From the NCBI RefSeq assembly GCF_016756535.1, contig NZ_AP023247.1:992001-1056000 (forward strand): 64,000 nucleotides of DNA, in the 5' to 3' direction. Of this stretch, positions 43,826 through 57,828 are shown in pieces (within the stretch, counting starts at the first letter, position 1; each line of letters starts with the position of its first letter). This stretch comes from Mesorhizobium sp. 131-2-1 (GTDB taxonomy: Bacteria > Pseudomonadota > Alphaproteobacteria > Rhizobiales > Rhizobiaceae). The notes under the pieces are model-generated. The model saw only the letters and a list, made by a program, of their open reading frames with translations. It had not been told where the DNA came from and searched no databases. Position numbers and translations under genes: made by a program.

Positions 43826-44017
43826 GCCCGGCCTCCTGTCCTTGCGGCGCAAGCTGATCGCTGCGCAGGCTTGGCGGGGATTATGCGCTGGGCCGAAACG
43901 CCACGCCAGTCAGAACGCACCGATCTGGTCACGCTGACGGTGCGAAGGGTGGCGCGGTGCCATGCGAGGTCGCACCGGCTCGTGCTGATCGAGCCCGTTG
44001 ACGAGGAACGAGCCGCA

Positions 44018-44092
44018 GCGCTGGCTCGGCGGGTTCCTGGGCCTGATCTTCGGCAAGCCGGCGAGGAATAGAGCAAAAGCCAATTGCCTTGA
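44018..44092 (+). pseudogene. Remnant of the glutamine amidotransferase 3' end
   Basis: About 75 bases match 42668-42743 at roughly 85 percent, covering the last codons (RWLGxFLGxIFGKP) and the following AGAGCAAAAGCCAATTGCC text. A one-base loss near the stop shifts the frame. Upstream, similarity fades. It is a leftover of a duplicated amidotransferase gene. Confidence 0.75.
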
Positions 44093-44167
44093 GTGCAGCC
44101 TCATCGGTCTCGGCGGCGCCGCGAATCTGTGGTAAGCCGCCGCTCCACCAACCAAAGGACGACACCT

Positions 44168-44398
44168 GTGAGCGAACCTACCGTGGCCGAGGCGACCGAG
44201 AGTATCTATGCGTCGCTGCAGGCCAACAATGCCGACATCGATGCGCATATCGCGACGCTCAAGGCGGCGCTGGCACGAGAAGGGCTAAAACAGGCGGTGT
44301 TCAATCCGACCAGGTTGGTGCAGAACAACCGCTCGGGCCGCAAGTTGATGCAGGCCTATTTCCGGCAGCGCGGCGTGAGCGTGAGCTTTTCGGAGTAG
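44168..44398 (+). CDS. Small conserved-looking protein of unknown function
   Basis: A 76-residue soluble protein starting VSEPTVAEATESIYASLQAN (GTG) and ending GRKLMQAYFRQRGVSVSFSE, largely helical and Lys/Arg/Gln-rich. Codon use is normal for the genome. AAAGGA lies eight bases before the GTG. I recognise no family. An upstream in-frame extension to 44093 is Arg/Ser-rich and unlikely. Confidence 0.6.
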   Translation: MSEPTVAEATESIYASLQANNADIDAHIATLKAALAREGLKQAVFNPTRLVQNNRSGRKLMQAYFRQRGVSVSFSE

Positions 44399-44492
44399 CG
44401 CCGCACGCATTGCGGACGTGGCGTGCAGGCAATCTTGGGGACTATGCTGTAAGATCAGCTTCCGATTGCCAGCTAGCCGATCGCGAAACCCA

Positions 44493-45422
44493 ATGCACCC
44501 ATCTGAACGGCTCAGATTTTGGAGCGAGCGGCTTCCTGACGATGGTTCGCCTCGTAGCATGCTCGCCAATATCTCCGACGATGCGAACAAGCGCCTTGTC
44601 GCATTGCGAGCGGCCATGCGCGCCTTCCCTGGAATCGCACGCATTGGCGATGGGCCGTGGGGATTAGGGCGCGAAATAGACCTTCCCATTCGCCTGCATT
44701 CAATCCGGGCAATCTTCGTAACGTGGAGCGAATTCGTTTTCGATGGTGTTCGCAATGATGCCCGGCGTGAGGCGTTCGACGCCCTTGCGACGCCGCTGGC
44801 CAAACTCGATGAGGCCCTTCCCGACTTCTACGAGCGCAATATCATAAGCAGCGACTATGCTGTTGCCGCCTGGCAGGACGCAACCGAAGCTGCTCGAAGG
44901 GGAGTTTCGCTTGTCGAGGCGATTGCGGCACTGGAATTTCGTGACCTCGCATTCGATCGGAACCGCTCCTATCGGGACTTCCTCGACACGCTCAGCATAT
45001 ACGGTCCGACCGGACGCGATGACATGGCCAGATGGCGGGCAGCGCAACGCGTCGCCATAGGGGCGGATTGCGCTGTCTTGGGAGAAGGCGAGATGACAAG
45101 GGCGGGCCTTGCGCTTGCCCCGCTTTGGCCTGATGCGACCAGCGCCGCACTGGAAACCAATCTCACGATGCGCCTGAGCTTCAAGAACAGCCAAGATCTA
45201 GGATATGACATTGAGAAGTGGCTACGCGAGCGCAAGGACGGATCCCTGATCCTCGGCATGGGCGTTGAGCAAGCACGAGAGCGTGTCGTCCGGACCGCGA
45301 ATCTCGCGGCTTCATTCTGGGAAACCCGACCCGCTGCCGACACGTGCCATGCTTTCGACTATTGCCTGCACGGAGATTTGCAGAACCCGGCCTGGGGCAG
45401 CGAGACAAGCCGCCGACCCTGA
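44493..45422 (+). CDS. Protein of unknown function
   Basis: A 309-residue soluble protein starting MHPSERLRFWSERLPDDGSP. It contains DGPWGLGREIDLPIRLHSIR, ANKRLVALRAAMRAFPGIAR, RREAFDALATPLAKLDEALP and AALEFRDLAFDRNRSYRDFL, with no motif I can place and no signal or membrane segment. Third-position GC is lower and codon use more mixed than in neighbours, which suggests recent arrival. No strong ribosome binding site is seen. It lies in the accessory stretch between the amidotransferase remnant and an adenylate cyclase. Confidence 0.55.
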   Translation: MHPSERLRFWSERLPDDGSPRSMLANISDDANKRLVALRAAMRAFPGIARIGDGPWGLGREIDLPIRLHSIRAIFVTWSEFVFDGVRNDARREAFDALATPLAKLDEALPDFYERNIISSDYAVAAWQDATEAARRGVSLVEAIAALEFRDLAFDRNRSYRDFLDTLSIYGPTGRDDMARWRAAQRVAIGADCAVLGEGEMTRAGLALAPLWPDATSAALETNLTMRLSFKNSQDLGYDIEKWLRERKDGSLILGMGVEQARERVVRTANLAASFWETRPAADTCHAFDYCLHGDLQNPAWGSETSRRP

Positions 45423-45730
45423 CGTGCCGAAAGTGCGCAATCAGTTGCGGCCGGCACGGCGCGCGGTGCGGCGCTATGCAGTTGATAAGTATAGTTGCTA
45501 ACCCAGCGATAGAACGAGCGGAAGGTGTCCCGTTCGAGCGCGACGCTTCTGCGCCGTGCGGTGCCACGGGGAAATCGACAACGCATTCCCGCACACGTCT
45601 CGCAGTAAATTTGGTATGCATATGCGAGGGAGAGGGGGGAAACAGATGAAACACGATCCTGGCTTGCCGTCCGACGCGACGCCGACGTTTCTGTTTCCGA
45701 AGACCTGATGCAAAAACAAAGTCAGATCTC
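45423..45730. other. Intergenic stretch before the adenylate cyclase, nothing recognised
   Basis: 308 bases with no supported gene; short frames on both strands lack start signals. It contains a purine-rich block GGGAGAGGGGGGAAAC near 45626-45643. The promoter of the following cyclase gene must lie here but I cannot point to it. Confidence 0.4.
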
Positions 45731-47863
45731 ATGTCTTCTTCAGATGTGACCGGCTCATCCAACCCCGCGGGCTGGGGATTGGCCGCAAAGCTGTTTGCAA
45801 CCCTTGTCCTTCTTGGCGCGATCGCGGTCATGGTCACCGGGGCGCTCGGTTACTTCCGCGCCCGCGATGCTCTCGAAAAGGCAGTCTTCGACCAACTCAC
45901 GGCCGCCCGTCAGACCAAGACGCGCCAGGTTGAAAACTACTTCCGCACGATCCAGGCGGAACTGCGCCTGCTTGCCACTTCCAAGATGGTGGTCGATGCG
46001 ACACGCGAGTTCCGGACCGCGGTCGACCAACTCGACCGGGCAGGCGCGCCGCCTGAGCTGCGGCAGAGGGTCGGCGATTGGTACGCTGGGAACTTCATCC
46101 CCGGAATGACCCGCACCCTGGGCAGGGAACCAGCCCTGTCGGACTACCTGCCGGTCAGTGGTGCCCCCTACTATCTGCAGTATCACTACATTGTGGAAAA
46201 TCCCAACCCCGCGGAACGGCGCAAGCTTCTCGACGACGCCGGCGACGGAAGCGAATACTCCAGACTGCATGCCATATATCATCCATTGATGCGCGCTGCG
46301 GCTACCACGGTCGGCTTTTTCGATCTCATGATTGCCGACCCCAAATCAGGTCGCCTGATCTATACGGTCGAGAAGCAGGTGGATTTCACCACGTCTCTTC
46401 AGTTGGGTCCGTACCGCAGCGCCAACGTCGCGGCCGCCGTCGCCCGCTGCTCGCAGGTCGCAGACCCGTCAGCCATCTGCCTCGTAGATTTCGCCTCCTA
46501 TGCGCCATCAGGCGGCGCGCCGATCGCCTTCATGGCAGCACCGGTGATTGCCCAGGGCGTCGTCATCGGCGTGCTGGTCGCGAAACTTTCGAATGATGAG
46601 ATCGACAACGTTGTCACCGGTAACCGCCGCTGGCGACAGGAAGGGTTCGGCGACACGGGTGGGGCCTATCTCGTCGGACCCGATTATCTGGCGCGCTCTG
46701 GCCCGCGGGCATTCTACGAGAACCGGGATAACTTCTTCGCCGACCTCAAGTCCGTCGGCGCCTCGGAAGAGGAGATCGCCGCCATTCAGCGTTACGGGAC
46801 ACCAGTGCTGCATCAGCGCATCGACACCGAGGCCTCCCGTGCCGCGCTCGCCGGCGTCGAGGGCACGGGCGAGATCATCGGATACCGTGGCGTCCCGACG
46901 CTCGCTTCATGGGGCCCGCTCGCGATTTCCGATCTCAAGTGGGCTCTCGTCGCCAAGGTCGACAGCGCCGAGGCCTTTGCACCGATCGCCGAACTCCGCC
47001 GGGATCTGTTGCTCGTCGGAGGACTGGCGATGCTCGTGGTCGCGGCCACCGCCGCCTGGCTTTCGCGCGCGCTGCTCGGACCGCTCCGCGATCTCACTGC
47101 CGGGGTCAAACGCTTCTCTGCCGGCGACTATGCGACCAGCGTGCCGGTCCGCACGCGCGACGAGATTGGCGAACTCTGCTCGGCCTTCAATGGCATGGTT
47201 GAGGATCTGCACCAGAAGAATGTCGTGATCGAGAACAAGAATCGCGAGAACGAGCAACTGCTGCTCAACGTCCTGCCGGCACCGATCGCCAATCGGCTGC
47301 GCGCCGGCGAGGAGAGGATCGCCGACGGCTTTGCCGAGGTCACGGTCGCCTTCGCAGATCTGGTCGGGTTCACGGCGCTGACATCGGAAATGCCGCCGCA
47401 CGATGTGGTGATGTTTCTCAACGGACTCTTCACGCGCTTCGACGTTGCCGCCAACGATCTCGGCATCGAGAAGATCAAGACGGTGGGCGACTCCTATATG
47501 GCGGTGTGCGGCCTACCCGTTCCGGTGGCCAACCACGCCGAGCGCATGGTCCGCATGGCCATCCGCATGGTCCACATTACCCGTGAGCACGCAATGGAAC
47601 ACAACGTCTCGATGAAGCTCAGGGTTGGCGTCAACAGCGGGCCAGTGGTCGCCGGCGTCATTGGGAAGAGTAAGTACATCTATGATCTATGGGGTGACAC
47701 AGTGAACCTGGCGAGCCGCATGGAGTCTGGCGGAGTTCCCGACTCTGTTCAGGTGACGCGCCCCGTCTACGAACAGCTCAAGGACCAATTCGTCTTCGAG
47801 CCGCGCGGCGCTATCGAAGTCAAAGGCAAGGGAAAAGTGGAAGCCTGGGTGTTGAGATTCTAG
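45731..47863 (+). CDS. Membrane adenylate cyclase with extracytoplasmic sensor and HAMP
   Basis: A 710-residue class III cyclase. Layout: first membrane helix (residues 18-42), a large periplasmic Cache-like sensor (43-420), second helix (LLLVGGLAMLVVAATAAW, about 424-446), HAMP (447-500) and the cyclase domain (530-705). Metal aspartates are in VAFADLVGFTAL and KTVGDSYMAVCG; the adenine-choosing Lys is in EKIKTVGD and Asp in YDLWGDTVNLASRM, with the transition-state Asn and Arg in the same block. All catalytic residues are kept, so it should make cAMP. No ribosome binding site is obvious at ATG 45731. Confidence 0.9.
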   Translation: MSSSDVTGSSNPAGWGLAAKLFATLVLLGAIAVMVTGALGYFRARDALEKAVFDQLTAARQTKTRQVENYFRTIQAELRLLATSKMVVDATREFRTAVDQLDRAGAPPELRQRVGDWYAGNFIPGMTRTLGREPALSDYLPVSGAPYYLQYHYIVENPNPAERRKLLDDAGDGSEYSRLHAIYHPLMRAAATTVGFFDLMIADPKSGRLIYTVEKQVDFTTSLQLGPYRSANVAAAVARCSQVADPSAICLVDFASYAPSGGAPIAFMAAPVIAQGVVIGVLVAKLSNDEIDNVVTGNRRWRQEGFGDTGGAYLVGPDYLARSGPRAFYENRDNFFADLKSVGASEEEIAAIQRYGTPVLHQRIDTEASRAALAGVEGTGEIIGYRGVPTLASWGPLAISDLKWALVAKVDSAEAFAPIAELRRDLLLVGGLAMLVVAATAAWLSRALLGPLRDLTAGVKRFSAGDYATSVPVRTRDEIGELCSAFNGMVEDLHQKNVVIENKNRENEQLLLNVLPAPIANRLRAGEERIADGFAEVTVAFADLVGFTALTSEMPPHDVVMFLNGLFTRFDVAANDLGIEKIKTVGDSYMAVCGLPVPVANHAERMVRMAIRMVHITREHAMEHNVSMKLRVGVNSGPVVAGVIGKSKYIYDLWGDTVNLASRMESGGVPDSVQVTRPVYEQLKDQFVFEPRGAIEVKGKGKVEAWVLRF

Positions 47864-48119
47864 TCGCGGGGGGCAGCGCCGATGGCGTTCATGCGTGCAA
47901 TGAGCCGATCCAAGATCAAGCAATAAATGGCAAAGTGGCTGCTTTGGGGACGCGGCGGAAATGTTTCCGACGACCGGGATGAGGTCCGAAGTCGAATGGC
48001 TTGTCGCGCTCACCCCCCAAAGCGGACTGACGGCTTCCGGCTAACCGCGGCATTTTCCACTTTGAGGCGAAATAATTCTCAACTATGGTTCGCCAGACTA
48101 AAGGCATGGGGGATTGCCG

Positions 48120-48779
48120 ATGGTTTTTTCACGCAGGGGTGTTGTGACCGGCGGCCTGGCACTGGTCGCGGTCGGTGCAGCCGGCAATATTGTTCAAGCC
48201 GCGGCGTCAAAATCCTATTTCGCCGGTACCGCCATCGACAACAATTTTGTCTATCGCAAGACCAACTTCGCCAAGATCGACAAGAGATGGCATCGCCAGA
48301 TCGTCAAGTATTTCAGCAGCGAGTCGGTCGGCACCGTCGTGGTCGATACCCGCCACCACTTTCTCTACCTCATCATGGAAAACAAGACCGCCATCCGCTA
48401 CGGCGTCGGCGTCGGCAAGGAGGGCTTCAAATGGTACGGCCGCGCGACGATCGACCGCCGCGCGCTGTGGCCGCAATGGGTCCCGCCCCCCGAAATGCTT
48501 AAGCGCAGGCCGGAGCTTCCGCCCATGATCGCTGGCGGCGCGCCCAACAATCCGCTCGGGCCGCGCGCGCTCTATCTGTACCGCGACGGCGCCGACATCG
48601 GCTACCGCCTGCATGGCACGCTGGAGCCATGGAGCATCGGCACCGACGCTTCCAGCGGCTGCATCCGCATGTTCCCGGAAGACATCATCGACCTCTACCA
48701 ACGGTGCCCGATCGGCACCGCGGTGGAGGTCCTGCCGCACATCGCCGACCAGGCGCCCGCTTCCACCACTGTCGAATGA
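48120..48779 (+). CDS. L,D-transpeptidase (ErfK/YbiS type)
   Basis: A 219-residue exported L,D-transpeptidase. A signal sequence with SRRGVVTGGLALVAVGA (twin-arginine-like) precedes the YkuD domain: VGTVVVDTRHHFLYLIMENK, IRYGVGVGKEGFKW, and the catalytic run YRLHGTLEPWSIGTDASSGC with IRM after it (His, then Ser-Gly-Cys). It makes 3-3 cross-links or anchors proteins to peptidoglycan. ATG 48120. The OmpA-type lipoprotein gene starts 10 bases downstream, so the two likely form an operon. Confidence 0.9.
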   Translation: MVFSRRGVVTGGLALVAVGAAGNIVQAAASKSYFAGTAIDNNFVYRKTNFAKIDKRWHRQIVKYFSSESVGTVVVDTRHHFLYLIMENKTAIRYGVGVGKEGFKWYGRATIDRRALWPQWVPPPEMLKRRPELPPMIAGGAPNNPLGPRALYLYRDGADIGYRLHGTLEPWSIGTDASSGCIRMFPEDIIDLYQRCPIGTAVEVLPHIADQAPASTTVE

Positions 48780-48789
48780 TTGGCGCATC

Positions 48790-49302
48790 ATGAACCGCAT
48801 GATTGAAAACACGCGCCGGCTGCTCGCAGCGGGCCTGCTGGTGCTGGCCGCATCCTGCTCGACCAGCAACACGCTGGCCCCTTCCACGCCCGACGTCACC
48901 AACGCCGAGATTGCCGGCTTCCAGACCGTGCAGCCGGGCAGCGAGGAGGATTTTATCCTCAATGTCGGCCGCCGCACCTATTTCACGAAAGGTTCGGCCG
49001 CGCTCGATTCTGTCGCCAAGACCACCCTCGACACCCAGATCGCCTGGTTGTCAAAGTATCCGCGCTGGCTGCTCAAGCTGCAGGGTTTCGCCGACGATCC
49101 CGGCGCAAGCGAAACAGCGCTGTCGCAGCAGCGCGCCGATGCAGTGATGGACTACCTCGCCGCGGGTGGCATAGACCGCAACCGCATGTGGGCCAAGGGC
49201 TACGGCAAGGACAGGCTCGTCCGCGACTGCCCCGACAACGCCTGCAGGTCGCAGAACCGCCGCGTTGTGTCCAATCTGCGCGATGAGAGGGACGACTCGT
49301 AG
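48790..49302 (+). CDS. OmpA-family (Pal-like) lipoprotein
   Basis: A 170-residue lipoprotein: signal with lipobox LAASC, a short linker, then an OmpA-C-type peptidoglycan-binding domain (YFTKGSAALDSVAKTTLDTQ, LQGFADDPGASETALSQQRA, YGKDRLV, SQNRRVVSNL). The diaminopimelate-binding Asp and Arg are in GFADD and QNRRV. RDCPDNACRSQ adds two cysteines. It probably tethers outer membrane to wall and pairs with the L,D-transpeptidase just upstream. The true pal gene of a Tol-Pal cluster would be elsewhere. Confidence 0.87.
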   Translation: MNRMIENTRRLLAAGLLVLAASCSTSNTLAPSTPDVTNAEIAGFQTVQPGSEEDFILNVGRRTYFTKGSAALDSVAKTTLDTQIAWLSKYPRWLLKLQGFADDPGASETALSQQRADAVMDYLAAGGIDRNRMWAKGYGKDRLVRDCPDNACRSQNRRVVSNLRDERDDS

Positions 49303-49376
49303 GGGGCTGCTGTTTTGCTGTCACCAAATCAGAGCCTCACAACGCGGCGGAATTTACCCGTCTCTTCCTGCCTGTA

Positions 49377-50171
49377 TCATCCGCCGCCGCCCGCCTTGGC
49401 TTCCGGCATAACTTGCAGCAACGGTTGCGGTGATACTGCGATCTCTCCCGTGAAGGGCCGATCGTGGGCGAGAATTAACAGAACGGATGCCGCCACGCCG
49501 GTCGCAAAACTTCCAAGAGCGATCGCCGATGCCATTCGGTTATCACTATGAACGATCGCGATCGCGAGAAGAGCACAGAAGGCTTGCAGGATCAGGCAGG
49601 CCCACTTCGTGGGATTGACTTGTGCCGAGCTGACGAGAATCCGTTGGCGACGCGCCTCGAAGGCGTCTTCAAGCCACCTCGTCATCTCGCGCTGCGCGAT
49701 CTCCTGGCCGGGATTGCCTGGCGCCAAAGCCAGCGTCGTCCGCAGCGCCTCGTTAAGCGCAGGTGGGATTATGGTGAGGGTCGCCGCGCTCTCGGCCATC
49801 AGCGGCCACTCCTGGCTCGTCGTTTCCTCGATATAGCTGCGAACCAGCGTCCGTAGGCGCGCCTCGGGCTCCCCGGGAAAGCTGCTCGCCAGAACCACGA
49901 CCGACCGCAACGCACTGGCCTCGCGATTGACTGCCGCACTGGCGCGATCGCTGTCGCTCCAGACCTGAGCCGCGGTGAACGCCACAAACAAGCCAAAGAT
50001 GATGCCGAGCGGCGGCAACATGCCAGGCGAAAGCGCCTTGAATGACCGCGCCGTGGAGCCCGCAGAAAGAGCGGCGATGCCTTGGTGCAAGATGAACGCG
50101 ACGATATAGGTGGCCCCGAACACTACGAGAGCCATCCAAGCCAGTGGAAGAGTATGCAACCAGCCACTCAT
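49377..50171 (-). CDS. DUF4239 (bestrophin-like) membrane protein
   Basis: A 264-residue membrane protein with two N-terminal helices (LAWMALVVFGATYIVAFIL, LPPLGIIFGLFVAFTAAQVW), a central cytoplasmic helical part (NREASALRSVVVLASSFPGE, IAQREMTRWLEDAFEARRQR) and two C-terminal helices. AAQVWSDSDRASAAVNREAS is the DUF4239 signature. The role is unknown; distant similarity to bestrophin channels has been proposed for the family. The start is placed at ATG 50171 (MSGWLHTLPLAW); the frame upstream is Arg-rich and unlikely. Confidence 0.8.
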   Translation of the reverse strand: MSGWLHTLPLAWMALVVFGATYIVAFILHQGIAALSAGSTARSFKALSPGMLPPLGIIFGLFVAFTAAQVWSDSDRASAAVNREASALRSVVVLASSFPGEPEARLRTLVRSYIEETTSQEWPLMAESAATLTIIPPALNEALRTTLALAPGNPGQEIAQREMTRWLEDAFEARRQRILVSSAQVNPTKWACLILQAFCALLAIAIVHSDNRMASAIALGSFATGVAASVLLILAHDRPFTGEIAVSPQPLLQVMPEAKAGGGG

Positions 50172-50516
50172 AGTACCACCCGCCCTATCCTGAGAATTCG
50201 TCGGCAGGCGTTTGTAGGGCCGTAGTTCCACTCGTGGCAATGCCACCGTGTTCCATCGTGTCAACAATCTCTACGTACGGCTACCAGCGCCGGTCGAAAG
50301 ACCTGCTTTATCAATCCGTAACCACCCGGTGACAGGTCGAGGCCTAAACGTTGATGTGGCACGGCGAAACGCCGGCCTAAAGCAGAGATCGGTTGACCTT
50401 AAGCGAGTGTCAGCTTTGCGCCTCATGTCGGCCGTTGAGGGCACCTTTGCCAACTCGTGAAAGCAGACATTGCCGGCGACGAGGCTTGGCGGTCGCGGTC
50501 GCGACTGGCGCAAAGA
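50172..50516. other. Intergenic stretch, nothing recognised
   Basis: 345 bases between the start of the DUF4239 gene and the end of the receiver-cyclase gene. Short frames on both strands have no start signals. It contains TAAGCGAGTGTCAGCTTTGCG-like text without a clear hairpin. I see no repeat or gene. Confidence 0.4.
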
Positions 50517-51770
50517 TCAGTCGAGGCTGATCCGCGTTCCCTTGGCGCCGTTGAGCAGCCGCTTGAGATGGAAGCTGGCGAGCTGGTCGTCCGGACATTT
50601 GCCGATCTGCGCGGCGAAAGCCGTAAGCGCGTTTGCATCGCCGGCCTCCAATCTGCCGAAGGCTTCAAGATAGCTGGCCGTCGAAGGATCATCATACTGC
50701 TTTGACGACAAAGGCTCGAACGCGCGCAGCGCCTCGGCCCTGCCGCGCAGCATCAGATCGCCGACCGGCCGTCCGCGGAAGCCGTCGACCCTTGCAGCGG
50801 CGCTCGCGCTGACGCAGATACGCGTGCCCAGCTGCTTGTTGGCGCTTTCCAGCCGCGCCGCTATATTGATGGTGTCGCCATAGGCCGTGTAGTCGAAGAA
50901 GCGGCCTCCGCCGAAATTTCCGACCAGCGCCGGACCTGCATGGACACCGATGCGGGTCGTACCGACCGCGACGCCCTTGTCGCGCCAGCTATCGCGGAAC
51001 GATTGCGACAGCGCGTCGAGCTCGAGCGCGCAGGCAACCGCACGCGCCGCATGGTCCTGCTGCTCGCCAGGCGCGCCGAACAGCACATGCAGCGCATCGC
51101 CGACGATCTTGGCGACGGTGCCTTCATGCGCGAACACGACGTTGGTCATGCTGGCCAAATAGTCGTTGAGGAGCGCGCCTAGCGTGGCAGGGTCGATCGT
51201 TTCCACCAGCGTGGTGAAGCTGGTAATGTCGGTGAACAGCGAGGCGACCTCACGCCACTGCCCGGCTAGCGCCGACCCGTCGGCGTCGCCGGCCAGCCGC
51301 TCGGCCAGATTGGGCGAGAAGTAGCGCGACAGCGATGCATGAGCGCGCTCCGCGACCGCTTGCCGCCTATGCGCCTCGTGCAGCACCTCGCGATGCTTCA
51401 AGGTCTTGGCGATCGTGGTCTCCAGGTCGGCAAAGTCGATCGGCTTAGTAATGAAGTCGAAGGCGCCGCGGTTCATCGCAGTGCGGATGTTGGCCATGTC
51501 ACCGTAAGCGGAGACGATGACCGTCGAAAGCTGCTGCCCCTCGGCCTGCTGCAGCTTCTCCAGCAGCGAAAGGCCGTCCATACGGGGCATGTTGATGTCG
51601 CACAGCACCATGTCGATGTCGCTGTTGCCGTCGATGACGGACAGGGCGTCCACACCATCGCTGGCAAACAGGAAAATGACCGCGCCGTCACGGATCTGAC
51701 GCCGGAACTTCTGGACGATCAAGACCTCAAGGTCGGGCTCGTCGTCGACCACGAGGATGCGCGCCGTCAC
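50517..51770 (-). CDS. Response regulator with adenylate cyclase output
   Basis: A 417-residue two-domain protein. The receiver (1-125) has the acidic pair in ILVVDDEPDLE, phospho-Asp D58 in LCDINMPRMDG, Ser/Ala in VSAYGDM and Lys in ITKPIDF. A linker helix leads to a class III cyclase (about 170-400): metal Asp residues in SLFTDITSFTTL and AKIVGDALHVLFG, and FFDYTAYGDTINIAARLES with the Asn/Arg catalytic pair; Lys and Thr at the base-choosing positions suggest ATP. The GTG start overlaps the stop of the receiver gene (GTGA). It is the output of the kinase cassette. Confidence 0.88.
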   Translation of the reverse strand: MTARILVVDDEPDLEVLIVQKFRRQIRDGAVIFLFASDGVDALSVIDGNSDIDMVLCDINMPRMDGLSLLEKLQQAEGQQLSTVIVSAYGDMANIRTAMNRGAFDFITKPIDFADLETTIAKTLKHREVLHEAHRRQAVAERAHASLSRYFSPNLAERLAGDADGSALAGQWREVASLFTDITSFTTLVETIDPATLGALLNDYLASMTNVVFAHEGTVAKIVGDALHVLFGAPGEQQDHAARAVACALELDALSQSFRDSWRDKGVAVGTTRIGVHAGPALVGNFGGGRFFDYTAYGDTINIAARLESANKQLGTRICVSASAAARVDGFRGRPVGDLMLRGRAEALRAFEPLSSKQYDDPSTASYLEAFGRLEAGDANALTAFAAQIGKCPDDQLASFHLKRLLNGAKGTRISLD

Positions 51771-52156
51771 GCTACCATTCCCAGCCGCGTTTCGATCTGT
51801 TGCCTGAGCGCCGCAAAGTCGATCGGCTTGGTCAGCAGTGCTTCGGCGCCGTCCTCCAACACCTTGCGCTTGGTTTCGGCGTCGCCATAAGCGGTGATCA
51901 TGATGACCGGGACGTCCGGCCGCTGCACCTTGATCTTCGGCAGGAGCTCGAGCCCGCTCATGCCGGGCATGTTGATGTCGGACAGCACCAGGATCAGTGT
52001 CACCCCTTCGGCGTGGTCTATCTGCTCCAACGCATCTACCGCCGATTGCGCGAACTCCATGGTGAAGCGGCTGGCTCGGATGTCGCGGCGGAACTGCTGG
52101 CGAAACAGCGGCTCGACGTCGGGCTCGTCGTCGACGACCAGGATGAGGAGGCTCAT
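51767..52156 (-). CDS. Single-domain response regulator
   Basis: A 129-residue stand-alone receiver. LILVVDDEPDVEPLF gives the acidic pocket, D60 in VLSDINMPGMSG is the phosphorylation site, and MITAYGD and LTKPIDF carry the switch Thr and the Lys. It is 50 percent or more alike to the receiver of the next gene by eye (both have DINMP, AYGD, KPIDFA). It overlaps the kinase gene upstream (ATGA) and the receiver-cyclase downstream (GTGA). It may compete for phosphate or shuttle it. Confidence 0.92.
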   Translation of the reverse strand: MSLLILVVDDEPDVEPLFRQQFRRDIRASRFTMEFAQSAVDALEQIDHAEGVTLILVLSDINMPGMSGLELLPKIKVQRPDVPVIMITAYGDAETKRKVLEDGAEALLTKPIDFAALRQQIETRLGMVA

Positions 52157-55100
52157 TCTTCACCTCCCGATTTTGCGAGCGAAGCCGCAGCGCGCGGCAG
52201 CACAATCCGAAACTCGGTGAACTCGCCTGGCTGGCTGATGACGTCGATCGTGCCAGCATGCTGTTTGACGACGATGTCGTGGCTGAGCGACAGGCCGAGC
52301 CCAGTACCCTCGCCGGCTGGCTTGGTCGTGAAGAATGGATTGAACATCTTCTCCTTCACCTCCGGCGGAATGCCGGTGCCGTTGTCGCGGATCCTGATTT
52401 CGACACGGTCGCCGAGACTCATGGTGGTGGCGCAGAGCGTCGGCTCATAGCCCGCGCCATTCGCCGCGGCGCCGCGCTTGGCTGTTGCATAAAAGCCGTT
52501 GGAGATGAGGTTGAGAAGCACCCGCGTGATCTCCTGCGGGTAGAGATCGACATCCCCCGCCTGCGGGTCGAAATTCCGCGTCAGCGTGACGTTGAATCCC
52601 GGCTTTTCGGCGCGCGCCCCGTGATAGGCAAGGTTCAGGCTCTCCTCCACGACGGCATTGATCTCGATCGGACGATGCTCTCCTGAACCCGCGCGCGAAT
52701 GCAGGAGCATGTTCCTGACGATGGAATCGGCCCGCTTGCCGTGCTGGCCCACCTTGTCGAGATTGCTCTTGAGCATGGCTGTCAGCTCGGCGACCTCTTC
52801 GCGCACGGATGCCTCCAAAGGCGCTCCGTCCAGCACACTGCTCAAATCATCGATGAGTTCGCTGGAGAGCGCTGAGAAGTTGTTGACGAAGTTGAGCGGG
52901 TTCTTGATCTCGTGGGCGATACCGGCGGTCAACTGGCCGAGTGAGGCGAGCTTCTCCGTTTGCACGAGGCGGTCCTGCGCGGTCCTCAGATCGTCGAGCG
53001 AGCGTGACAATTCGCGGGTACGCGCCTGCACCTCGTCGAACAGCCGTACGTTCTCGATCGCTATGCCGGACTGGTCGGCAAACGTCTCGACAAGCTCGAT
53101 CTGCCTCGGCGTGAAGTCCCGCACCTGTGACCGCGTCAGCGCGAACACTCCGACCGGCGCGCCTTCGCGTAAGATCGGAACGCATAGAATGGTTCGGTAG
53201 CCGCCGAGCTTCTGGAGCTGCGTTGCCCCGTAGTCCGGGTCGGCGAGCACGTCCGAAACGTGGACGGCGCGGGCTTCGAGGGCCACCCTTCCGGTGACGC
53301 TGTCGCGACCGGCGGCGAAGGGATTGGCTTTGGCGAAAGCCGCGGCTTCAGGCAAATTGCCGTAGTTGGCCGACCATCGGTAGAGATCGCCGTCGCGCTT
53401 GAAGATGACGCTCGTGTCCGCGTCGCACAGCTTGGCCGCTGATTCTGCCAGCGTGTCGAGAACCGGCTGCAGGTCGAATGTGGAACGGCTGATCGCCTTC
53501 AGAACATCCGCCGTTGCCGTCTGCTGCTGCAGCGACTCGCTCAATTCCGCCGTGCGGGCCTGTACCTCGTCGAACAAGCGGACATTTTCGATGGCGATCA
53601 CTGCCTGGTCGGCAAAGGTTTCGACGAGTTCGATCTGCCTTTCGGTGAAGGGCCGCACCGTCGAGCGGGTGAGTGAGAAAACGCCGATTGGAACCCCCTC
53701 GCGCAGCAACGGCACGGCCAGCACCGTGCGGTATCCGCCGAGCCGCTGTCCTTCCCACAGCGTGTAGTCGGCGTCAGCCAGCACGTCCGGAATCTGGACG
53801 GCCTTGCCTTCGAGCAGGACTCGGCCGACCCCGGTGCCGCGCCCCGGGACGTGCACAAAGCCGCTGAAATATTCCTCGAGCTCGGCCGGATAGCCGTAAC
53901 TCGCAGCCTCGACGAATTTGCCGTCCGTCTCACGCACGATCGAGGCGTTGTCCGCTTCGCACAGCCGGGTCACCGATTCGGCCAGAGCGTCGAGCACTGC
54001 CCGTAGGTCGAACGTCGAGCGGCTGATCGCTTTCAGGACGTCGGCCGTCGCCGTCTGCTGCTGCAATGCTTCGCCAAGCTCGGCGGTGCGCGCCTGCACC
54101 TCCTCGAAGAGCCGCACATTGCCGATTGCGATGACGGCCTGGTTGGCGAAAGTCTTAAGGAGGCCGATTTGGTTGTCGCTAAAGGGCCGCGCCTCGATGC
54201 GCCGGATCATAAGCGCTCCGATTGCTTTTCCTTCCTGCAACAGCGGAGTGGCGAGAATCGCACGAAAACCAAGAAGTTGAGCCATCATTCGGGCAGTTGC
54301 AAACTCCTCTCCAGCGATGGTCAAGTCCGTAACGTGGACCGGCACCCGATCCAATACGGCGCGGCCGGTAACGACGTCGCGCGCGACCGGCAAGCCAGTG
54401 CCGTCAATCGGAATCGGTCCGTGATGCGCTCCCACAGCCAGCCTGTCGGAGCGCAGCAGATAGATCGTTGCGTCATAGGCGTCGCAGAGCCGAGCGGCTC
54501 TTTCAGCGACGGCGTCCAGCACAGGCTGAATGTCCGTAGGAGACCCGGCGATCACTTGCAAAATCGCGCCGGTGGCCATCTGCTGTTCCAGCGACTCGGC
54601 TAGGTCGCGGTTGCGGGTCTCCACCTCTTCGAACAGCCGCACGTTCTCGATCGCGATGACCGCCTGATCCGAAAATGTCTGCACCAGTTCGATTTCGCGC
54701 GTACTGAACGGCGAGACCGACGAGCGGGCGAGGACGAAGACGCCGGTCACGGCGCCGTCACGCATCAGCGGAACGCCCAGCAGGGTGCGGAAGCCGCCGA
54801 GCCGTTGGCCTTCGATGTTGGTATACTCCGGATCGTCGAGAACGTCGGCAATCTGCTCTACGGACCCGCTCTGGGCAACACGGGCGGCGATGCTGCCCCG
54901 GCCCGGCGTGACCGGGAGGTTGTTCATGTGGTCCTGGAATTCTTGGCTCCATCCGATCTGTACCGTCGGCTGCAACACGTCGCCCTGGCGCAGATAGATG
55001 TAGCCCATCCCGGAATGACAGAGGTCGGACGCGGACTTCACAAGCGTATGCAGCACGGAATCGAGATCGAACACCGAACTGCTGATCGTCTTCAACACTT

Positions 55101-56292
55101 CGGCCGTCGCCGTCTGCTGATCCAGCGCCTCGGCCAGTTCACGATTGTGCCCCTCGACTTTCTCGATCAGCCGGGCATTCTCGATGGCGATCACCGCCTG
55201 GTCGGCGAAGCTCTCGACCAGTTCGACTTGACGCGGTGAAAATAGCCCGATCGTCCGACGCCCCATGCCGAATACGCCGATGGTCTCCTGACCCCGCTTC
55301 AGCGGAACAGCAAGTACTCCGCGGAAACTGCCCATGATTGCCGCTTCCGGCCTTTCGTATTCTGGGTCTTCGAGCGCGTCCGCCACGTGGATCGTCAATC
55401 CCTCCAGCGCGGCGCGGCCCTGGAACGTCCCTCGTCCCACGACATGTGGGTTGGCTCGTTCGTAGGCATGCAGCTCGGCAGCCTGCCCGCCGCCTGCCAT
55501 GAACCGCAGCGTATCGCCAACGCGCAATGTGATTGCGCCCATGTCCGCCCCAGCCAGGCGTATTGCCGAGTCGACCAGCGTCTGCAGTACCGGTTGAAGA
55601 TCGAAGGCCGACCGGCTGATTGCCTTGAGCACATCGGCGGTCGCGGTCTGCTGCTCCAGCGCCTCGCCGAGATCGCGCGTGCGCGCCTGCACCTCCTCGA
55701 AGAGGCGGACATTTTCGATGGCGATGACGGCCTGGTCGGCGAAGGTTTTGAGTAGCTCGACTTGTTTTTCGCTGAACGGTCTGACCTCCGTTCGGCGAAT
55801 GACGAGCGCTCCAATGGCCTCGTCCTCACGCAGCAAAGGGGTGGCGAGAATTGTCCGGTGACCAAGCCGCAGCGCCATCGATCGGCCTGCAGGGAACTCG
55901 CCCTCCAGCGCGAGCAGATCATGCACGTGGATCGGCCTGCGATCGATCACGGCGCGGCCGGTGACCCACTCCCGCGTGATCGGAAAAGTGGCGAAGTCGA
56001 TGGGGATCGGCCCGTGGTGTGCGCCAATGGCCAGCGATTCCCCTTGCCGCAGAAAGATCGCCGCGTCATAGGCGTCGCAGAGTTGTGCGGCGTTTTCGGC
56101 GACCGCATTCAGGACCGGTTGGATGTCGGTCGGCGATGCAGCGATCACCCTGAGGATCGCACTCGTCGCAGACTGCTGTTCAAGGAGATTGGCGACCTCC
56201 GCGGTGCGCATCTGATTTTCTTCGCGCGCGGCTGTCAACTCGGTTCGGAGCGAGCTGATAGTCATCTCAGAGTCGGAGTCGGGCCCTCCCAC
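52153..56292 (-). CDS. Soluble histidine kinase with six GAF domains
   Basis: A 1379-residue kinase without membrane segments. After a short coiled coil (residues 10-40), six GAF modules of about 175 residues follow, each opened by a helix of the type QQTATADVLKAISRSTFDLQ or EQQSATSAILRVIAASPTDI and closed by FADQAVIAIENVRLFEEVQ. Then the dimerisation helix with phospho-His in LGQLTAGIAHEIKNPLNFVN (about residue 1126) and the ATPase domain: RVLLNLISNGFYATAKR, IRDNGTGIPPEV and EGTGLGLSLSHDIVV. The start is GTG 56292; ATG at residue 10 is an alternative. It is coupled by overlaps to two receiver genes. Ligands are unknown. Confidence 0.93.
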   Translation of the reverse strand: MGGPDSDSEMTISSLRTELTAAREENQMRTAEVANLLEQQSATSAILRVIAASPTDIQPVLNAVAENAAQLCDAYDAAIFLRQGESLAIGAHHGPIPIDFATFPITREWVTGRAVIDRRPIHVHDLLALEGEFPAGRSMALRLGHRTILATPLLREDEAIGALVIRRTEVRPFSEKQVELLKTFADQAVIAIENVRLFEEVQARTRDLGEALEQQTATADVLKAISRSAFDLQPVLQTLVDSAIRLAGADMGAITLRVGDTLRFMAGGGQAAELHAYERANPHVVGRGTFQGRAALEGLTIHVADALEDPEYERPEAAIMGSFRGVLAVPLKRGQETIGVFGMGRRTIGLFSPRQVELVESFADQAVIAIENARLIEKVEGHNRELAEALDQQTATAEVLKTISSSVFDLDSVLHTLVKSASDLCHSGMGYIYLRQGDVLQPTVQIGWSQEFQDHMNNLPVTPGRGSIAARVAQSGSVEQIADVLDDPEYTNIEGQRLGGFRTLLGVPLMRDGAVTGVFVLARSSVSPFSTREIELVQTFSDQAVIAIENVRLFEEVETRNRDLAESLEQQMATGAILQVIAGSPTDIQPVLDAVAERAARLCDAYDATIYLLRSDRLAVGAHHGPIPIDGTGLPVARDVVTGRAVLDRVPVHVTDLTIAGEEFATARMMAQLLGFRAILATPLLQEGKAIGALMIRRIEARPFSDNQIGLLKTFANQAVIAIGNVRLFEEVQARTAELGEALQQQTATADVLKAISRSTFDLRAVLDALAESVTRLCEADNASIVRETDGKFVEAASYGYPAELEEYFSGFVHVPGRGTGVGRVLLEGKAVQIPDVLADADYTLWEGQRLGGYRTVLAVPLLREGVPIGVFSLTRSTVRPFTERQIELVETFADQAVIAIENVRLFDEVQARTAELSESLQQQTATADVLKAISRSTFDLQPVLDTLAESAAKLCDADTSVIFKRDGDLYRWSANYGNLPEAAAFAKANPFAAGRDSVTGRVALEARAVHVSDVLADPDYGATQLQKLGGYRTILCVPILREGAPVGVFALTRSQVRDFTPRQIELVETFADQSGIAIENVRLFDEVQARTRELSRSLDDLRTAQDRLVQTEKLASLGQLTAGIAHEIKNPLNFVNNFSALSSELIDDLSSVLDGAPLEASVREEVAELTAMLKSNLDKVGQHGKRADSIVRNMLLHSRAGSGEHRPIEINAVVEESLNLAYHGARAEKPGFNVTLTRNFDPQAGDVDLYPQEITRVLLNLISNGFYATAKRGAAANGAGYEPTLCATTMSLGDRVEIRIRDNGTGIPPEVKEKMFNPFFTTKPAGEGTGLGLSLSHDIVVKQHAGTIDVISQPGEFTEFRIVLPRAAASLAKSGGEE

Positions 56293-56589
56293 TGAGGTGC
56301 TCCTGTCTTTCTCTGCTCAGTGTCGGCTTTGGCCAGCCTAGCGTCAAGTTTGGTGACCTGCAACGTCCGTTTGTGACGCAGCGCGGCCGCTTTGGTGATG
56401 CACCTGAGCGTCGGATTTCGGAGCTGTTGCAGACAGGGAATACGTCCGAGATGGGATCGTAGGCCGAGTGCCCGCTTCTTCGCACCTTGACCTAAAACCA
56501 GTCGGTCAGCCTCCGGCCCCATCTCAGCCATTATCGGCGCAAGCTGATTGGCGCGAGCGTCGGATCCAGCGGCTAAGATCCGGTGCTAA

Positions 56590-57828
56590 TCAATTCCGGC
56601 CGTTGAGGTGCCGTACCCGCCGCAGCGCCGGGAACAGCCACGCCCACAAGCCCGCAACCGCGACGGCGCCGATGCCGCCGATCACCACCGCCGGCACGGT
56701 GCCGATCAGCGCCGCCATGGTGCCGGCGCGGAATTCGCCGACCTCGTTGGAGGCACCGACGAAGACCTGGTTCACCGCATTGACGCGGCCGCGCACCTCG
56801 TCCGGCGTCCACAGCTGGATCAGCGTCTCGCGGATATAGACGCTGAACATGTCGGTGGCGCCGAGCAAGGCGAGGGCCAGGATCGACAGCCAGGTGATGG
56901 TTGAAACGCCGAACAGAACGGTGACAGCGCCGAACAGAGCGACGAAGCCCAGCATGATCTTGCCGGCATGGTCGCGGATCGGGTGGCCGGCGAGCCAGAC
57001 CGCGACGCAGATGGCGCCGATGCCTGGTGCCGAGCGGAGCAGGCCGAGGCCCCACGGGCCGAGCTCGAGGATGTCGCGCGCATAGACCGGCAGCAGCGCG
57101 GAGGCGCCCGACAGCAGCACGGCGAAAAGATCGAGCGAGATGGCGCCGAGCACGATCTTCTCGCTCCAGATGTAGCGGAAGCCGGCGAACAGCGTCTCCA
57201 TCGTCGGCTTGTCGGTGGCAGTCTGCTGGGCGGGCTTCGGAATGGTGAAGACCAGCACGGCGGCCACCAGCATCAGGAGGGCGGCGGTGATGTAGGCCGC
57301 CTCCGCCGAAAGCCCGTAGAGCAGGCCGCCGGCAACCGGGCCGACAATCGTCGCCGTTTGCCAGGCCGAAGAATTCCAGGCGATCGCGTTGGCGAAATCC
57401 TCCTGCGGCACCAGATTGGCGAACAGCGAGGACGAGGATGGTCCGTAGAAGGCGCGCGCGATGCCGAACATGGCGAGCACGACGAAGATCGGCAGCGGGC
57501 CGGCGAGGCCGCGCAACGTAAGCAGCAAGAGAGCAACCGCACAGCCCGCTTCGATCAGCGACGACAAGGTCATGATCAGGCGGCGGCCGAAGCGGTCGGC
57601 GACGACGCCGGTGACCAGCACCAGAAGCAGCGACGGCAGGAACTGGACGATGCCGACGATGCCGAGGTCGAAGGGATCGCGGGTGAGGTCGTAGACCTGC
57701 CAGCCGACGGCGACCGAGACGATCATGGTGGCGAAAGTGGTGAGGAAGCGCGCCGCCCAATAGCTGAGGAAGGGTCTGTGCCGGAACGCGGCATAGCGCT
57801 GGTCCGGCGATGTCTGCTCAACAGTCAT
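56590..57828 (-). CDS. MFS transporter, EntS-like exporter
   Basis: A 412-residue major facilitator with about 12 membrane segments. RHRPFLSYWAARFLTTFATM opens it; VTGVVADRFGRRLIMTLSSL is the motif-A loop; FYGPSSSSLFANLVPQEDFA and NAIAWNSSAWQTATIVGPVA match the enterobactin-exporter-like (EntS/MFS_3) group. The substrate is unknown. The start is placed at ATG 57828, though the bases before it (CCTTTCCTTCC) are pyrimidine-rich; upstream GTG or TTG starts in the same frame are possible. Confidence 0.83.
   Translation of the reverse strand: MTVEQTSPDQRYAAFRHRPFLSYWAARFLTTFATMIVSVAVGWQVYDLTRDPFDLGIVGIVQFLPSLLLVLVTGVVADRFGRRLIMTLSSLIEAGCAVALLLLTLRGLAGPLPIFVVLAMFGIARAFYGPSSSSLFANLVPQEDFANAIAWNSSAWQTATIVGPVAGGLLYGLSAEAAYITAALLMLVAAVLVFTIPKPAQQTATDKPTMETLFAGFRYIWSEKIVLGAISLDLFAVLLSGASALLPVYARDILELGPWGLGLLRSAPGIGAICVAVWLAGHPIRDHAGKIMLGFVALFGAVTVLFGVSTITWLSILALALLGATDMFSVYIRETLIQLWTPDEVRGRVNAVNQVFVGASNEVGEFRAGTMAALIGTVPAVVIGGIGAVAVAGLWAWLFPALRRVRHLNGRN

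What the first reader, a model, noticed from the sequence alone, without database searches (positions are those of the whole stretch)
50517..56292. Six-GAF kinase, receiver and receiver-adenylate cyclase cassette
Three genes overlap start-to-stop (ATGA at 52153-52156, GTGA at 51767-51770), so they are translationally coupled: a 1379-aa soluble histidine kinase with six GAF modules, a lone receiver and a receiver joined to a class III cyclase. All phospho-acceptor and cyclase residues are kept. This reads as a complete cytosolic path from an unknown chemical signal to cAMP. Receiver-cyclase fusions and multi-GAF kinases are known separately; the coupled triple is, to my knowledge, little studied.
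Basis: partly seen in the sequence, partly recalled or inferred. Interest (0 to 1): 0.8.

Follow-up and report, generated by a model that had tools for sequence, protein, structure and literature searches.

The report
Roaming kinase-to-cAMP cassette with swappable sensors
Three overlapping genes form a compact relay that should turn sensed signals into the messenger cAMP; the relay is shared by many soil and root-nodule bacteria, but in Mesorhizobium it sits at a different genome site in each strain compared and its string of sensor modules varies by whole units.

Summary
Confirmed: a six-GAF histidine kinase, a lone receiver and a receiver-adenylate cyclase overlap by 4 nt each, with phospho-acceptor and cyclase residues intact. 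Of 102 loci read, 91 keep this order; 8 lack the lone receiver, so it looks accessory. Full-length receiver-cyclases appeared only in Alphaproteobacteria, patchily (13 of 297 genomes of the order). Inputs differ: Cache-HAMP membrane sensors in the Bradyrhizobium and Methylobacterium kinases examined, soluble GAF arrays in Mesorhizobium and on Rhizobiaceae plasmids. Twelve near-identical copies with readable flanks sit in different surroundings; cassette identity exceeds zwf in 36 of 36 genome pairs (means 96.8, 89.0%); 29 relatives fetched at each of two sites lack it there. Its GAF array varies by whole modules from a shared pool (15 arrays in 16 kinases; identity 93% within types, 40% between; no order conflict). 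Rhizobiaceae plasmids show a second pool. The own genome holds a second, kinase-truncated copy. Phosphotransfer, cAMP output, ligands and mobility mechanism are untested. New variant of a known kind.

The parts
52153..56292 (-). Soluble histidine kinase, 1379 aa: six GAF modules, HisKA (probable phospho-His H1127 in GIAHEIKNP), HATPase_c
55654..56178 (-). GAF module 1 (pool type F)
55120..55653 (-). GAF module 2 (type C)
54586..55119 (-). GAF module 3 (type D)
54061..54585 (-). GAF module 4 (type A)
53527..54060 (-). GAF module 5 (type E)
52993..53526 (-). GAF module 6 (type B), the only GAF module kept in the second genomic copy
51767..52156 (-). Lone receiver (129 aa, acceptor D60), overlaps the kinase by ATGA
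50517..51770 (-). Receiver (acceptor D58) fused to class III adenylate cyclase (D181, K221, D225, T295, N302, R306), overlaps the receiver by GTGA
56506..56520 (-). Left (5') edge of the DNA shared with other Mesorhizobium copies (approximate; pairwise ends of the copies with an intact left end scatter over about 56507-56531); GGGCCG-type motif followed by GCTGACCGACTGG
50401..50508 (-). Right-edge repeat (RE), ~108 bp, a dispersed intergenic repeat; shared cassette DNA mostly ends here at about 50411
44398..56546 (.). Insert relative to relatives: in 13 of the 29 relative loci fetched, window ~44398 lies within about 150 nt of the sequence matching window 56535-56589
45731..47863 (+). Neighbouring second class III cyclase (HAMP, sub-threshold dCache match) inside the same insert; not part of the cassette

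Best explanation
It is a two-component-to-cAMP output module (kinase core, lone receiver, receiver-cyclase) that evolution keeps constant while exchanging the kinase's input. Inferred working: GAF modules respond to cytosolic ligands or redox state, set autophosphorylation of H1127, and phosphate passes to D58 of the receiver-cyclase, which makes cAMP as a dimer; the lone receiver competes for phosphate at D60 (sink or tuning arm), since eight related loci do without it. In Mesorhizobium the whole ~6.1-kb unit is transferred between strains and re-inserted at new sites, and the GAF array changes by loss, gain or exchange of whole ~534-bp modules at the similar inter-module linkers. Shown by sequence: gene order, active residues, different surroundings, transfer signal, module presence/absence. 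Inferred: phosphoryl flow, cAMP output, sensing role, recombination as the cause.
For: Order kept in 84 of 94 loci (these include the window and the truncated second copy L117), plus L078 and 6 of 8 plasmid loci; 8 of the 102 lack the lone receiver; 2 contigs are too short; 1 (L083) shows no kinase. Invariant acceptor and catalytic residues. Of 35 Bradyrhizobium-named loci 32 share both flanks with at least 31 others, while no two of the 12 Mesorhizobium copies with readable flanks share 1 kb or more of same-side flank except L034/L184 on the right. In 8 relatives the cassette core is 95-98% identical to the window versus zwf 86-90% and the neighbouring MFS gene 82-89%; 36 of 36 genome pairs have cassette above zwf; third-position identity to the window 92-97% versus 72-79%. 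No cassette at the orthologous site in 29 of 29 fetched loci, at two sites, including genomes that carry it elsewhere (G034, G053 at the window site; G046, G065, G078 at the L184 site). Sixteen kinases carry 15 distinct arrays; 65 module-type pairs seen at least twice, 0 order conflicts versus mean 38.6, minimum 26, in 1000 shuffles. Linkers are more alike in DNA than cores in the 3 kinases measured. A second pool in six plasmids of Rhizobiaceae recorded as complete. Genomes in few contigs (G000 2, G031 3, G078 4) carry three different arrays, which speaks against draft-assembly collapse.
Against: No biochemistry. No ligand for any GAF type. No transposase or integrase inside the unit; the mobilising agent is unknown. 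Only two control genes (zwf, MFS) were compared, and cassette and zwf identities are weakly correlated (Spearman 0.32, Mantel p 0.08), so some vertical signal is not excluded. Flanks were read for only 2-10 kb, so an extra insertion beside a copy could hide a shared site. Modules are about as diverged as the rest of the cassette (median spread 2.6 points), so most variation could be module loss from a longer ancestor; evidence for exchange between alleles is modest (window F, C, B nearest L031; D, A, E nearest L035). Shuffles do not model shared ancestry. In the plasmid set one pair of types (a, b) occurs in both orders. Two Bradyrhizobium loci (L062, L080) share neither flank and L079 only the left, so different sites are not confined to Mesorhizobium.
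Confidence: 0.75

Rival explanations
1. Ordinary vertical two-component operon; site differences in Mesorhizobium reflect genome rearrangement and GAF number is neutral repeat drift.
For: 32 of 35 Bradyrhizobium loci do look vertical. Module presence varies without order conflict, as simple deletion would give. Weak positive correlation of cassette and zwf identity.
Against: Cassette core is more alike than zwf in 36 of 36 genome pairs, also at third codon positions against the window; only 10 of 98 other genus genomes in the sample carry it full-length; sites without it keep their flanks; homologues on plasmids, 12 of 20 matched records typed as conjugative.
Confidence: 0.12
2. The lone receiver is an obligatory intermediate (kinase to D60 to another protein to D58), a phosphorelay rather than a sink.
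For: Present in 91 of 102 loci; active site invariant in the 85 aligned.
Against: No histidine phosphotransferase domain among the three genes; eight loci have the kinase directly next to the receiver-cyclase with no lone receiver between.
Confidence: 0.2
3. The cassette is moved by a dedicated site-specific system acting on the dispersed repeats at its ends (integron-like or IS110-like).
For: Similar edges in most copies; right-edge repeat also found 3' of a neighbouring TPR-cyclase gene; four empty sites diverge right after a GGGCCG motif; an IS110-family transposase gene abuts the left edge in L031 and L036.
Against: Right ends of L034, L039 and L040 stop well short of the repeat's end, L117 and L184 slightly short; no recombinase inside; no attC-like fold (z -0.91); no consistent target duplication noticed by eye; homologous recombination at repeats explains the same facts.
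Confidence: 0.15
4. The GAF array differences are assembly artefacts of short-read drafts.
For: Many copies are in drafts; tandem ~534-bp repeats are hard to assemble.
Against: G000, G078 and G031, in 2-4 contigs, have three different arrays; L033 and L181, separate records with 99.8% identical DNA, agree; six plasmids recorded as complete show five arrays.
Confidence: 0.04

Closest known systems
CyaC of cyanobacteria (Anabaena, Spirulina)
   Same: Receiver and class III cyclase in one protein under histidine-kinase control; a review states that AphC purportedly phosphorylates and activates CyaC and that bicarbonate stimulates a cyanobacterial CyaC (PMC4284465, passages). Best PDB match of our cyclase is the 1wc0 group, from recall Spirulina CyaC.
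   Different: CyaC is recalled to carry a kinase in the same chain. Here kinase, lone receiver and receiver-cyclase are three overlapping genes, and the input varies.
Receiver-GGDEF enzymes such as PleD (PDB 1w25, listed)
   Same: Receiver-controlled nucleotide cyclase; the receiver regions are similar.
   Different: Output is c-di-GMP there (recalled); here a class III cyclase.
GAF-array sensor kinases in general (recalled)
   Same: Soluble kinases with tandem GAF domains.
   Different: Here the array is a subset of a shared pool of discrete module types, in a moving cassette coupled to a cyclase.
Integron gene cassettes and mobile insertion cassettes (recalled)
   Same: Gene unit without its own transposase, with repeats at its edges, at many sites.
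   Different: No attC fold found, three genes and 6.1 kb; no integrase inside.

Membership tests
Class III adenylate cyclase | Guanylate_cyc domain with two metal Asp, Lys/Thr(Asp) base pair, Asn and Arg | tested here: met
   (E 1.6e-22), residues; which residue does what is recalled
Class III adenylate cyclase | Makes cAMP from ATP | not testable with these tools
   no assay
Two-component system | HisKA and HATPase_c with H, N and G boxes | tested here: met
   box motifs recalled
Two-component system | Receiver acidic pocket, acceptor Asp, Thr/Ser and Lys in both receivers | tested here: met
   85 of 85 and 94 of 94
Two-component system | Phosphotransfer to the cognate receiver | not testable with these tools
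   -
CyaC-type (receiver, kinase, receiver, cyclase in one chain, recalled) | Kinase and cyclase in one polypeptide | tested here: not met
   separate genes
Integron cassette | attC imperfect hairpin at the 3' end | tested here: not met
   z-score -0.91, 34 of 200 shuffles fold as well; no GTTRRRY core seen by eye (recalled motif)
Integron cassette | Integron integrase in the genome | not tested
   -
Transposon or insertion sequence | Own transposase between the ends | tested here: not met
   the three signalling genes fill the space between the edges
Transposon or insertion sequence | Terminal inverted repeats and target duplication | tested here: inconclusive
   edges read by eye; nothing consistent seen, no systematic test

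The most novel reading that the evidence does not exclude
A travelling sensor cartridge: rhizobia share one fixed kinase-to-cAMP output and diversify its input by recombining a shared pool of discrete GAF modules (16 types in ordered arrays of 6-9 among the 13 near-identical Mesorhizobium copies), so that each lineage reads a different combination of chemical cues; dispersed intergenic repeats at the cassette edges and near other cyclase genes provide the landing sites.
Probability: 0.35. Interest if true: 0.8.

Novelty: new variant of a known kind. Interest (0 to 1): 0.6.

Why it matters
It gives a natural series of one output module with many inputs, so the ligand and contribution of single GAF modules can be tested by comparing alleles that differ by one module (for example window F-C-D-A-E-B against L181 F-C-D-A-G-E-B). 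It also suggests that sensory input in soil bacteria can vary within a genus by whole-module turnover on transferred DNA, and it offers a compact histidine-kinase-to-cAMP switch for biochemistry.

Tried and rejected
Integron attC: the right edge does not fold much better than shuffles. Rfam scan of 43900-57200: nothing at gathering score. A motif count of edge repeats in the window was uninformative (two patterns 0 hits; left-type 3 against 2.54 expected; right-type 1 against 0.00). Connected-component typing of GAF modules chained distinct types and was replaced by average linkage. A first synteny script read the wrong column and returned empty lists, redone; a module script crashed after printing the module coordinates, its typing was done. 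The apparent shared right flank of L035 with Bradyrhizobium is ABC-transporter ATPase genes at about 70%, about 8 kb away, read as paralogy; a similar one-sided match of L037 to L074 (2110 bp, 74%) was not followed. The idea that the window genes 44.4-50.4 kb belong to the cassette: rejected, the copies in L031-L040 match the window only over 50401-56531, and the neighbouring 48.2-50.3 kb genes occur elsewhere in other contexts. GAF arrays of other genera are not built from the Mesorhizobium pool (best match of each module 35-61% in the 13 loci with two or more modules).

Literature (search listings only, except passages of PMC4284465): searches listed no paper whose title or abstract start described this triple or pooled GAF arrays; one search listed none at all; subscription papers are mostly not held. 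I read no paper in full.

The genome search was used to its cap (12 of 12), so the left-edge repeat was not counted genome-wide. No structure was predicted. The genome draws overlap one another, and the loci counted are not phylogenetically independent (L117 is the second copy of the own genome; L033 and L181 are nearly identical; of 338 relatives only the best 80 were kept and read).
Full report
OBSERVATION. Pfam gives six GAF stretches, HisKA and HATPase_c for the kinase, one receiver for the middle gene, receiver plus Guanylate_cyc for the last. The kinase lacks a membrane segment by a simple hydropathy scan. The cyclase is closest by sequence in the PDB to the 1wc0 group; the Lys221/Thr295 pair together with that match is, from recalled knowledge, typical of the bicarbonate-responsive subclass IIIb, so bicarbonate could be a second input; this is inference.

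CONSERVATION OF THE TRIPLE. A genome scan for the receiver-cyclase found 338 relatives and kept the best 80. With own and related genomes, 94 loci with a full-length receiver-cyclase were read (window and its second copy included): 84 have kinase and lone receiver upstream on the same strand; kinase/receiver overlap is 4 nt in 77 and receiver/cyclase overlap 4 nt in 66. L078 proved to have the receiver too. Of 20 plasmid records matched, 14 over at least 80% of the query, 8 were fetched: 6 have the triple and 2 lack the lone receiver. In all: 91 of 102 triple, 8 two-gene (L079, L090, L267, L268, L270, L276, L317, L321), 2 contigs too short (L051, L064), 1 without a detected kinase (L083). Receiver D9, D10, D60, T88, K110 are invariant in 85 of 85; receiver-cyclase D9, D10, D58, S87, K109 and the cyclase residues in 94 of 94 (T295 93 of 94). 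The two-gene form argues that kinase to receiver-cyclase is the basic line and the lone receiver a modulator.

RANGE. Full-length matches: 13 of 297 genomes drawn from the order, 7 of 385 from the class at E 1e-90, 12 of 398 from the phylum at E 1e-60, all of the window's class; a thirteenth genome of that class matched residues 3-335 only, and outside the class only the cyclase part (residue 103 onward) matched. The draws overlap. On plasmids: Sinorhizobium, Rhizobium, Ensifer, Tardiphaga; six records (four S. medicae, one S. chiapasense, one R. tropici) match only 46-69% of the query.

INPUTS. Four kinases from Bradyrhizobium and Methylobacterium examined by Pfam are Cache-HAMP proteins with one GAF or none (L092, L079, L060, L054). 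Among 75 kinases outside the Mesorhizobium set, a model built from the window's own GAFs finds 0 in 29, 1 in 33, 2 in 7, 3 in 2, and 5, 6, 9, 11 in one each; the model may miss distant GAFs.

THE CASSETTE MOVES IN MESORHIZOBIUM. Of 98 other genus genomes sampled, 8 carry the core at 95-98% identity and 2 at 74-75%. Thirteen near-identical copies were compared (window, L031-L040, L181, L184); 12 have a readable flank (L033 none, L036 right only). Homology of L031-L040 to the window stops at the cassette edges, and no two copies share 1 kb or more of the same-side flank except L034 and L184 on the right, 1.77 kb holding a TPR-cyclase gene. One-sided matches of L035 and L037 to other genera passed the threshold; the L035 one is ABC-transporter paralogy, the L037 one was not followed. 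By contrast 32 of 35 Bradyrhizobium-named loci share both flanks with at least 31 others; L079 shares only the left, L062 and L080 neither. Controls: in the 8 genomes with the near-identical core zwf is 86-90% (88-89% in the 2 with the 74-75% core) and the MFS gene 82-89%; all 36 pairs among nine genomes have cassette above zwf (means 0.968, 0.890; Spearman 0.32, Mantel p 0.08); third-position identity to the window is 0.92-0.97 against 0.72-0.79. Empty sites: 97 of 99 genus genomes matched the window's MFS neighbour; the 29 best relatives fetched show no cassette in the ~1.5 kb beside it, and in 13 window ~44.4 kb follows within about 150 nt, so the window cassette lies in a ~12-kb insert; G034 and G053 among them carry the cassette elsewhere. 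At the L184 site 103 of 146 genomes matched; the 29 relatives fetched lack the cassette there (G046, G065, G078 among them carry it elsewhere), and two (L329, L347) show left flank followed within 0.46-0.69 kb by right flank beyond the TPR-cyclase. The own genome has a second copy 4.7 Mb away, 99.94% identical over 3137 bp, holding the last GAF module, kinase core, receiver and receiver-cyclase; its kinase is truncated at the 5' side and carries a one-base indel there.

THE GAF ARRAY IS MODULAR. Modules of 173-185 aa were typed by core identity (average linkage, 70%): 21 types in 17 kinases, within-type mean 0.93 (minimum 0.69), between-type mean 0.40 (maximum 0.68). Arrays: window F-C-D-A-E-B; L181 and L033 F-C-D-A-G-E-B; L184 H-F-C-D-A-Q-J-E-B; L031 F-C-D-A-G-I-B; L032 O-D-K-A-J-E-L-B; L034 F-C-D-A-G-I-M-B; L035 H-C-D-A-E-L-B; L036 O-D-K-A-J-B; L037 H-F-C-D-A-E-B; L038 H-C-D-K-A-G-P-L-B; L039 H-C-D-A-G-E-B; L040 H-C-D-A-G-I-M-B; and in the less alike group L044 N-C-A-R-S-I-P-T, L045 N-C-A-U-I-M-B, L049 N-C-A-I (the second own copy L117, B alone, was left out of the order test). 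65 type pairs occur in two or more arrays and none is in conflict; shuffling the 15 distinct arrays with the last module fixed gives 26 or more conflicts in each of 1000 trials. Linker DNA within one gene is more alike (means 0.68-0.74, up to 0.92, three kinases) than cores (0.59-0.61), which would favour homologous recombination between modules. Per-module identities between 12 copies are fairly even (median spread 2.6 points; up to 9 where type J is shared), with modest mosaicism: window modules F, C, B are nearest L031, D, A, E nearest L035. Six Rhizobiaceae plasmid loci show a separate pool: a-b-c-d-e (L322), a-c-d-e (L315), b-c-d-e (L319), b-a-d-e (L316, L318), a-d-e (L320); here one pair, a and b, is swapped (letters assigned by me from its identity table, members 75% alike or more to their nearest).

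EDGES. The left edge lies at about window 56506-56520, the right edge in a ~108-bp repeat at 50401-50508. A sequence model of that repeat has 9 hits below E 1e-5 in the own genome (150 of 7848 first-look candidates were scored): two are the cassette copies, 3 of the other 7 lie within 1.5 kb of a class III cyclase or TPR-cyclase gene; two of the 7, one of them near a cyclase, were in the model's training set. Other cyclase genes stand near the cassette in the window, L032, L034, L037, L184 and plasmids L315 and L318. Recombinase genes adjoin some copies: IS110 family at the left edge of L031 and L036, a tyrosine integrase in L038, an integrase-like fragment just below the Pfam cut-off in L035. 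At four of the 29 L184-type sites the conserved flank runs to a GGGCCG motif and then differs in every genome. These facts fit recombination at dispersed repeats but do not prove any mechanism.

VERDICT. A real, conserved kinase-to-cAMP module, working like CyaC by inference but not CyaC by architecture; the unexpected parts are its mobility in Mesorhizobium and the modular turnover of its sensor array.

Noticed in passing
window 45731-47863 (+): A second class III cyclase with HAMP and a sub-threshold Cache match sits about 2.5 kb from the cassette inside the same insert, with a weak right-edge repeat match at 47929-47995.
   Followed up: partly
window 48114-50267: L,D-transpeptidase, OmpA-family and Bestrophin-like genes form another accessory block; the Bestrophin-like gene matched in 10 other genomes of 145, with the block in a different order in L222.
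   Followed up: partly
own genome, 33 places: 33 class III cyclase matches in one 7.1-Mb genome.
   Followed up: no
L117:13617-16753: Second cassette copy; by eye its neighbours look like TspO and ECF sigma/anti-sigma genes (no family search). Kinase truncated to its last GAF, both receiver genes intact.
   Followed up: partly
L317, L321: Two-gene kinase/receiver-cyclase forms on plasmids of Tardiphaga and Rhizobium share annotated neighbours (mechanosensitive channel, MBL-fold and alpha/beta hydrolases).
   Followed up: no
L324, L325, L327, L328 near the L184-type site: Flank conserved up to a GGGCCG motif, then a different sequence in each genome: a possible insertion hot spot.
   Followed up: partly
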